A DNA stretch of 64,000 nucleotides from contig NC_012785.1 of NCBI RefSeq assembly GCF_000023325.1, positions 1,426,001 to 1,490,000 on the forward strand. The letters are read 5' to 3'. Position numbers and translations under genes: made by a program. Shown here piece by piece: positions 211-35,385 of this stretch. Under the pieces are notes generated by a model that made no database searches, was not told the DNA's origin, and saw nothing but the letters and a program-made list of their open reading frames with translations. Position 1 is the stretch's first letter. Every line of letters starts with the position of its first letter. The DNA is from Kosmotoga olearia TBF 19.5.1. GTDB lineage: Bacteria > Thermotogota > Thermotogae > Petrotogales > Kosmotogaceae.

Positions 211-297
211 TCCTGCTTCGCAGGGGGAATAACGTGAAACGAACCGCAAGCGGTTGTTGCGAACCACTTCGTGGTTGTTATGAACTGCTTTGCAGTT
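211..297. repeat. 21-base mini-hairpin array (island 1)
   Basis: Four consecutive units, each an inverted repeat with a short spacer: TCCTGC-TTC-GCAGG, AACCGC-AA-GCGGTT (242), AACCAC-TTC-GTGGTT (262) and AACTGC-TTT-GCAGTT (283). Unit starts are 20-21 bases apart. The arms differ between units but remain self-complementary. This is the first of at least eight islands of the family. An extra 7-bp inverted repeat (ATTCCGA / TCGGAAT) lies just upstream at about 185-208. Confidence 0.8.
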
Positions 298-320
298 GAA
301 AAAATTGATACTTAAAACGA

Positions 321-3171: not shown

Positions 3172-3600
3172 TGCTGAGAGCTAAGAAAGCTGCTACGCGC
3201 TGCGGGGCAGCGGATTCGAATCCCTTCGGGATTGTCACGAACTGCTTCGCAGTTGAAAAAACATTGGGCGCTTGCGAGGCTGTCAGCTGATGAAGCAACG
3301 CTTGCGAGGTTGAGGCTTGCGGACGCTGATAAAAGCCGAGAATCCGAGAATCCGAGAATTCGAGAGTCCGAGAAAAAACATGACGCTTGCGATAAAAAAC
3401 ACGAGAGTCAGAGAGGGCCGCTACGCGGCGGAAGTACTGAGCAGCGCTCAGGAGGCTCACGACGTTGACGCTCACGAGGTTGAGGCTTGCGGACGCTGAT
3501 GAAAGCCGAGAAACCGAGAGTCCAAGACGCTTGCGGGGCTATGCGCTGCTTCGCAGCGGCTATGCGCAACTTCGTTGCGGCTAAGTATCTTTTAGAGAGC
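3172..3600. repeat. Repeat island 3: 21-base units and CCGAGAAT tandem motifs
   Basis: Mini-hairpins AATCCC-TTC-GGGATT (3219) and AACTGC-TTC-GCAGTT (3240) are 21 bases apart. GGCCGC-TAC-GCGGCG (3416) and CTGAGC-AGC-GCTCAG (3437) are also 21 apart. Between them are degenerate units (GAGGCTTGCGGACGCTGAT) and short tandem CCGAGAATC motifs. It includes an unoccupied copy of the IS110 insertion site, GAGAGTCC-GA-GAA at 3362-3374. Frames on both strands stay open because 21 is a multiple of three, but they have no ribosome binding sites and are low-complexity, so I call no gene in 3088-3756. Confidence 0.8.
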
Positions 3601-12776: not shown

Positions 12777-12922
12777 GAGAGTCCGAGAATTCGAGAGGGC
12801 CGCTACGCGGTGGAAGTGCTGAGCTGCGCTCAGGAGGCTCACGACGTTGACGCTCACGAGGTTGAGGCTTGCAGACGCTGATAAAAGCCGAGAATCCGAG
12901 ATCCGAGAATCCGAGAGTCCGA
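12777..12922. repeat. Repeat island 4, left part (interrupted by IS110)
   Basis: Contains GGCCGC-TAC-GCGGTG (12,798) and CTGAGC-TGC-GCTCAG (12,819), 21 bases apart, then CACGACGTTGACGCT / CACGAGGTTGAGGCT tandem copies and CCGAGAATCCGAG motifs. It ends at ...GAGAGTCCGA, where the IS110 element is inserted; the same repeat resumes at 14,433. A second GAGAGTCC-GA-GAA site lies at 12,777-12,789. No gene is present between the hup start and the transposase start. Confidence 0.8.
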
Positions 12923-12930
12923 TGTAGGAG

Positions 12931-12936
12931 TAAAAT
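12931..12936 (+). promoter_or_regulatory. -10 half of a junction promoter for the bridge RNA
   Basis: TAAAAT lies eight bases inside the left end. If the element is excised as a circle (right end - GA - left end), the TTGACA at 14,419-14,424 comes to lie exactly 18 bases upstream of it, giving a near-consensus sigma-70/A promoter directed into the left-end RNA. Published IS110 work (IS621) describes such a junction promoter. Here it is inferred from sequence. Confidence 0.7.
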
Positions 12937-12943
12937 AAAGGAG

Positions 12944-13095
12944 GCAGTCAGGAGGAAGAGAGGAACAGAGAGTCCATTCGCCATGAGAGCGACTGCTTCT
13001 CACACTCCCTCTTCCATCCTGGGAGTACTAGAGGATCAATAGTAGGATATCCGGGGAAACCCAGGAACGCTACATCGATTAACCTGTACTCATTG
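12944..13095 (+). ncRNA. Predicted bridge RNA of the IS110 element
   Basis: Two guide-bearing stem-loops lie between the left end and the transposase. Target loop: outer stem GGAAGAG (12,954-12,960) / CTCTTCC (13,009-13,015), apical stem TCGC / GCGA (12,978-12,992), left guide GAGAGTCC (12,968-12,975) identical to host DNA left of the GA core, right guide TTCTC (12,997-13,001) complementary to core plus right flank GAGAA. Donor loop: outer stem AGTAC-AGG-ATC (13,024-13,037, TAG bulge) / GAT-CCT-GTACT (13,077-13,090, TAA bulge), apical TCCGGG / CCC-A-GGA, left guide ATAGTAGG (13,039-13,046) identical to the right end at 14,424-14,431, right guide CTACATC (13,070-13,076) complementary to GATGTAG at 12,921-12,927. 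RNA ends are approximate. Confidence 0.85.
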
Positions 13096-13124
13096 ACTGC
13101 ACAATGTTTTTTGGAGGAATCAGT

Positions 13125-14417
13125 ATGGATGTTGTGGGAATTGACTGGTCGTGGAATTTTCACACCTGCTATTCTATCGAACAGGATAAGGTTTTTAAGA
13201 TCAAAGATGGTATAGCGGGGTATGAGAAGCTTCTGAAAACGGTATCAAAAGACGCTGTTTTCGTTATTGAGGAGAGTTTCAATCGTCTGGGAGATTTCTT
13301 GTTGTCCAGAGGGAAAGAGGTTTATCTCCTGCCACCGAAAAGGTCAAAGGAAGCCAGAGGCTATCATTCGAACGGCGTGAAGACAGATTCAACAGATGCC
13401 AGGTGTATCGCCCTTACCTACAAAGAACACCCGGAATATTGTATTAAGGCGACACATGACGAACTGGGTATGCTTTTCAGGGAATTGTTGAGGCATTACA
13501 GGTACTATACCGACATGGTTGCAAGACTTAAGAACAAACTTCAAAACGAACTTCATAATTATTTTCCTGAATATGCTAGGGTGATGGGTAGTTCTTGGAC
13601 AGATTGTGACGGGAAGATATTCCTGCTCACCATATGCCCGGATATAACCATGCTCAGGAAGATATCTGACAAGGAGATAAATAGACATTTCCAAGCGAAT
13701 CATCTACGCTACACATCCTCATTGAAAAGAAAGGTCAAAGAACTCAGGGAAAAAGCCGTTGATTGGGGCATGTCAAAATACACCAGGGACATGATCGCGA
13801 ATGTTGCCACACAACTTCTGGAAGCAAAAAGAGAGAAAAAGAAAATAACAAAAGAGATGGAGAAAGAACTACGTAAATCGAAATACAACATAATACTGAC
13901 GCTCCCGGGTGTTGGAGTAGCTACAGGAGTAGCATTAGTAACAGCATTTCTTACACACGAATTCAAAAATTACAGGGATTTCCAGAAGTATTGTGGAACT
14001 ATGCCAATAGTATCCCAGAGTGGTAATTTTAGCGTGTGCAGGATGAGGAAAAACTGTGACAAGAAACTCAGAGGCATTCTCCATATGATGGCGATAAACG
14101 CGAAGAAATGCGGAGCATGGATGAAAGGCTACTATGACAAGAAGATAAATAAAGAGGGCAAGAAACCATCTCTTGCCCTCAGAGCATTGGCAAACATCCT
14201 CGTCAAGATAGCCTTCGCCATGCTAAGAAACCTAAAAGCCTACGATGAGGAACTCTTCCTTTCCTCGCGTGGGAATAGGAGTCCTCGGTTAAATTATACA
14301 ACAAGAAATAGCATACCGGGGACTAAAAAAATGAAGAAAGAAAAGTTATCCCTGCCTGTCTCTGTTGCTCAAACCAACTGCCATTTGGGAGCAGTTTCAG
14401 GTAGTCTGTCTCCTTGA
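13125..14417 (+). CDS. IS110-family transposase (bridge-RNA-type recombinase)
   Basis: A 430-residue recombinase. The N-terminal RuvC-like DEDD domain shows GIDWSWNFH (first Asp), VFVIEES (Glu) and KTDSTDARCIA (last two Asp). A charged coiled region follows (about residues 110-260). The C-terminal Transposase_20 domain starts at ILTLPGVGVATGVALVTAF and contains CGTMPIVSQSGN, where IS110 proteins carry the nucleophilic serine. Length is normal and there is no frameshift. The ATG at 13,125 has GGAGG eight bases upstream and is preferred to an ATG seven codons earlier. The stop overlaps the base pairs of the right-end TTGACA. Predicted to work with the RNA encoded directly upstream. Confidence 0.95.
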   Translation: MDVVGIDWSWNFHTCYSIEQDKVFKIKDGIAGYEKLLKTVSKDAVFVIEESFNRLGDFLLSRGKEVYLLPPKRSKEARGYHSNGVKTDSTDARCIALTYKEHPEYCIKATHDELGMLFRELLRHYRYYTDMVARLKNKLQNELHNYFPEYARVMGSSWTDCDGKIFLLTICPDITMLRKISDKEINRHFQANHLRYTSSLKRKVKELREKAVDWGMSKYTRDMIANVATQLLEAKREKKKITKEMEKELRKSKYNIILTLPGVGVATGVALVTAFLTHEFKNYRDFQKYCGTMPIVSQSGNFSVCRMRKNCDKKLRGILHMMAINAKKCGAWMKGYYDKKINKEGKKPSLALRALANILVKIAFAMLRNLKAYDEELFLSSRGNRSPRLNYTTRNSIPGTKKMKKEKLSLPVSVAQTNCHLGAVSGSLSP

Positions 14418-14418
14418 C

Positions 14419-14432
14419 TTGACATAGTAGGT
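14419..14432 (+). promoter_or_regulatory. Right end of IS110 with -35 half of the junction promoter
   Basis: TTGACA (14,419-14,424) is a consensus -35 box just after the transposase stop; it has no -10 box downstream in the integrated state. The adjoining ATAGTAGG (14,424-14,431) is the left donor segment repeated in the donor loop of the predicted RNA. One base (T, 14,432) separates it from the GA core. Confidence 0.7.
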
Positions 14433-14898
14433 GAGAAAAAACATGACGCTTGCGACAAAAAAACACGAGAATCCGAGATCTGAGAACCGAGAGAGCTGCC
14501 TTTGCAGCGGGTAAGCACGCTTCGCGTGGCTACACTACGAAAGCAGGGATTCTCGAATTCTAGGGTCTCGGTTATTGATCGCGTCAGGAATAACGGTCTT
14601 TTGTCTGTGGGCTCTTATTTTAAGCAATGTCAACTGCGAAGCAGTTCGAAACAACTCCGAAGGAGTTCGTATCACCGGTGAAGCCGGTCGTAACAATCCC
14701 GAAGGGATTCGTATCCGCTGCAAAGCAGCCCTTTCGCTTTTTGATTTTTACGTACAACGCACAACGTACAACCAACAACGGGTTTTATCGCCGCGCAGCG
14801 GTTCGCGTCGCTCCATCAGCTGACAGCGTTGCAAGCCTCAGTTGTGCATTGGTTACCGGTTCTCGGATCTCGAACACCGGATCTCGGATTCTCGGTTT
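14433..14898. repeat. Repeat island 4/5: IS110 right flank and five-unit 21-base array
   Basis: After the resumed host repeat, the clearest array starts at 14,632 and continues at 14,653, 14,674, 14,695 and 14,716, an exact 21-base period: AACTGC-GAA-GCAGTT, AACTCC-GAA-GGAGTT, ACCGGT-GAA-GCCGGT, AATCCC-GAA-GGGATT, CGCTGC-AAA-GCAGCC. Linkers are CGAAAC, CGTATC or CGTAAC. Further right are GTACAAC direct repeats, a segment shared with island 7 (CAGCTGACAGCGTTGCAAGCC reads in the opposite sense there) and TCTCGGATCTCG motifs. Open frames here encode heptapeptide-like repeats (NSEGVRI, NPEGIRI) without ribosome binding sites, so I call no gene. Confidence 0.85.
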
Positions 14899-23344: not shown

Positions 23345-23740
23345 ACAATAGATACTCGCGAGGCGGAAGTGCTGGACTACGTCCAGGAGGCTCACGACGT
23401 TGACGCTCACGAGGTTGAGGCTTGCGGACGCTGATAAAAGCCGAGAATCCGAGATCCGAGAATCCGAGAATTCGAGAGTCCGAGAAAAAACATGACGCTT
23501 GCGATAAAAAACACGAGAATCCGAGAGGGCCGCTACGCGGCGGAAGTGCTGAGCTGCGCTCAGGAGGCTCACGACGTTGACGCTTGCAGACGCTGATAAA
23601 AAGCCGAGAACCGAGAACCGGGATTCGAGATCCGGGATTAGAAATTAAATGCGAGATTGGATGTTGGAGACTGGATTTTAGATAAAGATCTGGTCTAGGG
23701 TTTAGAAAAAGAGACGTACAACGTACAACCAAAACGAGAA
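23345..23740. repeat. Repeat island 6 with empty IS110 site and ~120-bp module
   Basis: Two tandem copies of the GGCCGC-TAC-GCGGCG / CTGAGC-TGC-GCTCAG / CACGACGTTGACGCT module (partial at 23,355, full at about 23,526). Between them is CCGAGAATCCGAGATCC sequence and an unoccupied IS110 target, GAGAGTCC-GA-GAA at 23,474-23,486, followed by AAAAACATGACGCTTGCG exactly as right of the IS. The segment 23,628-23,735 is the reverse-complement partner of the module at 1190-1345. The remaining 23,741-23,885 shows no convincing gene. Confidence 0.82.
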
Positions 23741-31917: not shown

Positions 31918-32135
31918 TCGAGAACGGAGAATCCGAGAACTGAGAGGGCCGCTACGCGGCGGAAGTGCTGGACTACGTCCAGGAGGCTCACGACGTTGAC
32001 GCTCACGAGGTTGAGGCTTGCAGACGCTGATTAGAAGCCGAGAATCGAGATAGCCGCTGCGCGGCGCTCCGAATCCCTTCGGGATTGTTACGACCGGCTG
32101 CGCCGGTGTTACGAACTCCTGTGGAGTTGCCTCCG
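31918..32135. repeat. Repeat island 7, left of the IS3 element
   Basis: GGCCGC-TAC-GCGGCG and CTGGAC-TAC-GTCCAG units, then CACGACGTTGACGCT copies. A three-unit array follows at exact 21-base spacing: AATCCC-TTC-GGGATT (32,072), ACCGGC-TGC-GCCGGT (32,093) and AACTCC-TGT-GGAGTT (32,114). The IS3 element starts directly after the last unit. No gene is seen between the mutase start and the IS. Confidence 0.82.
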
Positions 32136-34889: not shown

Positions 34890-35385
34890 CGTTGTAGGTT
34901 GTACGTAAAAATCGAGAACCGAGAGCCGATAGCTGCTGCGCAGCCGAGGCTTGCAACGCTGTCAGCTGGTAGAGCGACGCTTGCGAGGCTGAGGCTTGCT
35001 ACGCTGTCAAATAAAGTAACGCGAACCGCTGCACGATTCAAAAAACCGTCATTATGGAAATGTTTTATCGAGAATCTGGTCTTCTTAAGTACGAGATCCT
35101 GAATCAAGTTCAGGATGACAGTCCCTGTTTTCAAGGTGTGCTTACCGGTTCTCGGACTCTTGGTTTGGACTCTCGACTTTTTTCGAGTAACTTACAACTC
35201 ACAACCGACAACGTCCCTTACATCTGCCGCAGGCACGTATCACCAACGTAGTTGGTCGAGCAACTGCGCAGCAGTTCGCAGCAACCACGAAGTGGTTCGC
35301 AACAACTCCGCAGGAGTTCGCAACACTGGCGAATCCAGTCGTACCTGTTCTCGCCTTCTCGAATCTCGGATCTCGATTGGGGTTG
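34890..35385. repeat. Repeat island 8 with five-unit 21-base array
   Basis: The right part is an array at 35,242, 35,262, 35,283, 35,304 and 35,325: ACCAAC-GTA-GTTGGT, AACTGC-GCA-GCAGTT, AACCAC-GAA-GTGGTT, AACTCC-GCA-GGAGTT, ACTGGC-GAA-TCCAGT. The left part holds GAGGCTTGCAACGCTGTCAG-type modules shared with island 5 in reverse. The perfect inverted repeat ATCCTGAA-TCAAG-TTCAGGAT lies at 35,095-35,115. No gene is evident in 34,885-35,472. Confidence 0.85.

What the first reader, a model, noticed from the sequence alone, without database searches (positions are those of the whole stretch)
12911..12936. Empty-site comparison: the IS110 target is a multicopy host repeat
The site GAGAGTCC-GA-GAA also occurs unoccupied at 3362-3374, 12,777-12,789 and 23,474-23,486; two of these continue as AAAAACATGACGCTTGCG, exactly like the right flank. 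This fixes the element's ends to the base and shows a 2-base GA core. An RNA-guided element aimed at an intergenic repeat would have many harmless landing sites and rarely damage genes.
Basis: seen in the sequence. Interest (0 to 1): 0.7.

Follow-up and report, generated by a model that had tools for sequence, protein, structure and literature searches.

The report
Jumping gene aimed at host repeats
A bacterial jumping gene of the IS110 (bridge-RNA) type sits in a short spacer repeat that its host carries about a hundred times, and near-identical copies elsewhere carry guides altered at the target-reading letters; most of these match their own landing sites, so the element is a clear but largely expected example of a known RNA-guided mechanism.

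Summary
The 1,510-bp element (12923-14432) lies between two GA dinucleotides inside GAGAGTCC-GA-GAA. Empty paralogous sites exist at 3362, 12777 and 23474. GAGAGTCCGA occurs 92 times in the 2.30-Mb genome (reversed control 4). It is an IS110-family element: both IS110 domains, a 437-aa recombinase, and a two-domain upstream RNA with target and donor guides. Its circle junction would form a near-consensus promoter. Four copies exist in the genome, all in the repeat. Three carry guide GAGAACCGA and sit at GAGAACC-GA (9/9 match). The window copy's guide is GAGAGTCCA. It matches its own left flank over 8 bases, but one base out of register. In a related genome, guides vary again while the rest of the RNA is nearly constant. 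One retargeted copy there interrupts a MerR-type regulator gene, and another no longer matches its own site. So "aimed at a multicopy repeat" is right for this genome but is not a family trait. REP targeting by IS621 and natural redirection (ISEc11/ISXne4) are published, so this is a new member of a known kind. Its added value is a natural series of guide changes among near-identical copies.

The parts
12913..12920 (+). left target half-site GAGAGTCC (host repeat)
   Evidence: direct reading; same 8-mer in the guide at 12968-12975
12921..12922 (+). left copy of the GA core
   Evidence: 2-bp direct repeat shared with 14433-14434; same in copies B, C, D
12923..14432 (+). IS110-family element, 1,510 bp
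   Evidence: four copies with identical ends
12931..12936 (+). TAAAAT, -10 half of a promoter that would form at the circle junction
   Evidence: TTGACA-18-TAAAAT, 11/12 to consensus
12944..13100 (+). predicted bridge RNA, two hairpin domains closed by a common helix
   Evidence: MFE -62 kcal/mol, z -3.6; consensus fold of 7 leaders
12949..13021 (+). first domain, target-binding loop
   Evidence: fold; nearly all variation between copies lies here
12968..12976 (+). left target guide, GAGAGTCCA (GAGAACCGA in copies B, C, D)
12995..13001 (+). right target guide GCTTCTC, reverse complement GA-GAAGC; right flank GA-GAAAA matches 5
13023..13091 (+). second domain, donor-binding loop
   Evidence: fold
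13039..13046 (+). donor guide ATAGTAGG, same as right-end ATAGTAGG
   Evidence: direct reading; invariant in all copies
13069..13076 (+). donor guide GCTACATC, reverse complement of core plus left end GATGTAG
   Evidence: direct reading; invariant in all copies
13104..14417 (+). recombinase (TnpA), 437 aa
   Evidence: PF01548 and PF02371; relatives of IS621 and ISCro4 by profile
14419..14424 (+). TTGACA, -35 half of the circle-junction promoter
14433..14434 (+). right copy of the GA core
14435..14454 (+). right target side GAAAAAACATGACGCTTGCG, host repeat
   Evidence: repeat family D7, 97-100% to 3370 and 23482
3362..3374 (+). unoccupied site GAGAGTCCGAGAA
12777..12789 (+). unoccupied site GAGAGTCCGAGAA in the same repeat block as the insertion
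23474..23486 (+). unoccupied site GAGAGTCCGAGAA

Best explanation
A bridge-RNA-guided IS110-family insertion sequence in what is probably Kosmotoga olearia. The recombinase, loaded with an RNA made from the element's left end, reads half a target (about 7-8 bases) plus a GA core with one guide and the core plus a few bases on the other side with a second guide. It then inserts the circular element at the core. The left guide happens to read the short tandem unit (GAGAACC, or GAGANTCC) of a mosaic intergenic host repeat, which gives it about a hundred near-equivalent landing sites. The target guide evolves much faster than the rest of the element, so near-identical copies can be retargeted to other repeat variants or to genes. 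Shown here: ends, core, copies, guide variation, guide-flank matches, repeat counts. Inferred: that the RNA is made, that it guides insertion, that retargeting causes the new insertions, and that the repeat is a safe site.
For: Both IS110 Pfam domains; profile match to IS621 and ISCro4 structures, E 1e-10 to 1e-11. Four copies of identical length with GA at both ends. B, C and D guide GAGAACCGA equals left flank GAGAACC-GA 9/9, always at leader position 46. A guide and left flank share GAGAGTCC. All five fixed leader differences between A and B/C/D fall within 14 of 181 bases (P about 2e-4 over all placements). In G002, 6 of 8 variable leader columns lie in the 15 guide columns (P 4e-6), and L050 matches its flank 8/9. 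Donor guides are invariant and match the ends. RNA folds into two domains, z -3.6. Circle-junction promoter 11/12. Host repeat counts 92 and 106 against 4 and 7.
Against: The window copy's guide is one base out of register with its own site, and its core position reads CA instead of GA. The sequence the guide specifies in register, GAGAGTCCA, is not a repeat (9 sites against a control of 23). Copy D's right flank matches the right guide only at the core. L032 in G002 does not match its own guide well. No expression or transposition data exist. The sample of independent copies is small.
Confidence: 0.85

Rival explanations
1. The guide-flank match of the window copy is a coincidence of purine-rich GAGA sequence. 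The copy was placed by an ancestral guide such as GAGAGTC-GA or GAGAACC-GA, and its present guide is a drifted, perhaps non-working one.
For: Match is one base out of register, 2/9 in register. About 2.4% of GA-ending window sites match the leader over 8 or more bases. GAGAGTC is also the first seven guide letters of the G002 copy L032, so it may be ancestral.
Against: The eight letters matched are exactly those next to the core, and the A-specific changes cluster in the target-reading hairpin. B, C and D match 9/9.
Confidence: 0.25
2. An ordinary transposase with a 2-bp target duplication and a DNA preference for GA-rich repeats; the leader RNA is irrelevant to target choice.
For: All known left flanks share C-GA next to the element, a possible protein or handshake preference.
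Against: Left targets differ between copies as the guides do. Donor guides match both ends and are invariant. The protein family is experimentally RNA-guided (PMC11208160, PMC11187229).
Confidence: 0.04
3. Repeat targeting is only survivorship: insertions elsewhere were lost because they broke genes, and the guide has little specificity.
For: A G002 copy does sit in a gene, so the family can hit genes.
Against: 9/9 match in three independent copies at one guide position. 106 sites in 2.3 Mb make three random hits very unlikely.
Confidence: 0.05

Closest known systems
IS621 and its bridge RNA (IS110 family, E. coli; PMC11208160, PMC11208158)
   Same: Left-end RNA with target-binding then donor-binding loop; left target guide of 7 bases plus core on the 5' side; promoter formed at the circle junction; targets a multicopy intergenic repeat (REP).
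   Different: Core is GA, not CT; recombinase is longer (437 aa against 328 aa in the solved IS621 chain) and only distantly related; target is an 8-bp tandem-unit mosaic repeat, not a REP palindrome.
ISEc11/ISXne4 natural redirection (IS1111 family; PMC11187229)
   Same: Related elements whose target-matching RNA letters differ together with their target.
   Different: Those recombinases are 72% identical to each other; here copies 96-97% identical in one genome differ in the guide.
ISPpu9 and other IS110-type elements in REP sequences (PMC8450116, PMC1525189)
   Same: Multicopy intergenic repeat as landing site.
   Different: Different repeat and host lineage.

Membership tests
IS110 family (IS110 branch) | DEDD RuvC-like N-terminal domain PF01548 plus C-terminal PF02371 | tested here: met
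   57.9 and 60.4 bits, above cut-offs
IS110 family (IS110 branch) | catalytic D, E, D, D and S residues | tested here: met
   D14, E57, D95, D98 and S306 present in the window copy; positions assigned by alignment only
IS110 family (IS110 branch) | long non-coding region upstream of tnp (left end) | tested here: met
   181-nt leader, strong two-domain fold
IS110 family (IS110 branch) | insertion at a 2-bp core with no long terminal inverted repeats | tested here: met
   GA at both ends in four copies; ends TGTAGGAG and ATAGTAGGT are not inverted repeats
IS110 family (IS110 branch) | guides matching target and donor | tested here: met
   B, C, D 9/9; donor guides match ends; window copy 8/8 only with a slip
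IS110 family (IS110 branch) | RNA bound by recombinase and required for insertion | not testable with these tools
   needs an experiment
IS1111 family | subterminal inverted repeats and downstream non-coding region | tested here: not met
   the long non-coding region is upstream; only about 15 bases follow the ORF

The most novel reading that the evidence does not exclude
The guide is rewritten by templated copying of host repeat sequence (for example short-tract gene conversion between the flanking repeat and the guide). The window guide GAGAGTCC copies the flank letter for letter when anchored at the shared GAGA, and so is out of register with the pairing geometry, which selection for pairing alone would not favour.
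Probability: 0.06. Interest if true: 0.8.

Novelty: new member of a known kind. Interest (0 to 1): 0.42.

Why it matters
It gives a natural series of near-identical bridge-RNA elements, within one genome and its relative, in which the target guide has changed while nearly all the rest has not. That allows a direct test of how such elements acquire new targets, whether a one-base register slip is tolerated, and whether a guide for a multicopy spacer repeat protects host genes.

Tried and rejected
IMG/VR held no relative. The GTDB scan gave only one Thermotogales MAG, and the Thermotogota search only Kosmotogaceae, so the sample could not be widened much. Rfam has no model for the RNA (chance hits only). 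Mesotoga-like families in G007 are too distant to assign core and guide safely, so they were not used as evidence. GAGTTGCGAGTAA, the full predicted target of the L044 guide, has no site in G002. Reading 'harmless landing sites' as a family strategy was rejected because G002 guides do not match an enriched repeat.

Full report
The window is positions 1426001-1490000 of a single-contig genome of 2,302,126 bp. That length equals, from memory, the Kosmotoga olearia TBF 19.5.1 chromosome; the name is not confirmed by a tool.

Observation. GAGAGTCCGAGAA is present exactly at the three places named, with six more one-mismatch sites against 0.16 expected. The sites belong to mosaic intergenic repeats built of an 8-bp tandem unit CCGAGAAT and further blocks. 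The element's flanks match these repeats: the left 43 bases (about 95-98%) and right 28 bases (96-100%) align to unoccupied copies at window 3328-3397 and 23433-23509 and outside the window. Direct reading gives LT 12913-12920, GA 12921-12922, element 12923-14432, GA 14433-14434. The whole genome holds 92 GAGAGTCCGA and 106 GAGAACCGA, against 4 and 7 for the reversed patterns.

Element. The ORF 13104-14417 carries PF01548 and PF02371, and an alignment-based profile finds ISCro4 and IS621 structures. The 183-nt stretch 12921-13103 (the GA core plus the 181-nt leader) folds at -62 kcal/mol (z -3.6) into two hairpin domains inside one helix, resembling the two-loop IS621 bridge RNA (PMC11208158). 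The second domain carries ATAGTAGG (the right end) and GCTACATC (reverse complement of core plus left end). The first carries the target guides. Joining right and left ends, as in the circle, creates TTGACA-18-TAAAAT (11/12), the arrangement described for IS621 (PMC11208158).

Copies in the genome. These four are the only PF02371 genes. A is the window copy. B (155.6 kb), C (1957.7 kb) and D (532.7 kb) are 96-97% identical to it and have the same length. Left flanks are A GAGAGTCC-GA and B, C, D CGAGAACC-GA. Guides are A GAGAGTCCA and B, C, D GAGAACCGA. All five leader positions at which A differs from B, C and D (50, 51, 53, 56, 63) lie in the target-reading hairpin (P about 2e-4); three of the five lie strictly in the guide letters. 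B, C and D match 9/9 in a register of seven bases plus core. A matches 8/8 only when the guide is slid by one base, and 2/9 in register. A plausible reason is that the host repeat exists as 7-base units (GAGAACC) and 8-base units (GAGANTCC), and A sits in an 8-base one. This is inference. Because the G002 copy L032 also begins GAGAGTC, it is not settled which of A or B/C/D carries the changed guide.

Relatives. G002 (same family, other genus, about 40 contigs) has copies about 74% identical. Three leaders differ almost only in the guides: GAGAGTC, GAGTTGC and GTGTTTC on the left, and GTCTC or TACTC on the right (6 of 8 variable columns in guides, P 4e-6). L050 matches its left flank 8/9. L054, probably the other side of the same insertion, matches GAGTAA on the right. 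Its flanks read through as one open frame, with MerR domains on one side and GyrI-like on the other, so this copy interrupts a gene. L032 matches its own guide 6/9 but the L050 guide 8/9: the guide changed after insertion, or contigs were chimerised in assembly. Predicted sites of two G002 guides are not clearly enriched (12 against 20; 21 against 10). Hence repeat targeting is a trait of the K. olearia copies, not of the family.

Left and right guides are complementary to each other over four bases in the free RNA (GAGA/TCTC, GAGT/ACTC), with the last pair changed on both sides in L044 and L050. This fits targets in which the left half and the core-plus-right half both begin with GAG, that is, tandem units. 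It may be cause or effect of preferring tandem repeats.

Known context. REP targeting by IS621 and programmability are published (PMC11208160), as is natural redirection between related elements (PMC11187229) and a survey of IS elements in REPs (PMC1525189). I found no paper on this element or on the Kosmotoga repeats, within the held library only. The finding is therefore a well-supported new member of a known kind. What is less ordinary is guide change between copies 96-97% identical, and the out-of-register match of the window copy.

Noticed in passing
window 262-298, 3198-3255, 3544-3580, 14632-14710, 32072-32129, 35242-35320: Intergenic 21-bp-spaced small hairpins (6-bp stem, 3-nt loop such as AACCAC-TTC-GTGGTT, AATCCC-TTC-GGGATT, AACTGC-TTC-GCAGTT) whose stems differ but stay perfectly paired; 57 perfect 6-3-6 hairpins in the window against about 18 in shuffles. 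Looks like a hairpin repeat with compensatory stems.
   Followed up: partly
G000:C1:2138614-2138643 (L058) and 2100923-2100950 (L062): Remnants of the same element in the genome: a lone right end with right flank GAGAGCCG, and a lone 28-nt left end.
   Followed up: partly
L078 (G002:C20): This copy has QGG where all others have QSG at the presumed catalytic serine, so it is probably inactive as a recombinase.
   Followed up: no
L095-L098 (Mesotoga-like genome G007): A second IS110 family: in copy L098 one C-to-G change occurs both in the leader (GTCCTTGGTT) and next to the left end (CCTTGGTT), while L096 and L097 have C in both (L095 has C in the leader but TCCG at the end). The core is uncertain, so it was not used as evidence.
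   Followed up: partly
all left flanks of intact left ends: The base before the GA core is always C although the rest of the left target varies; this fits a handshake or protein constraint at target position 7.
   Followed up: no
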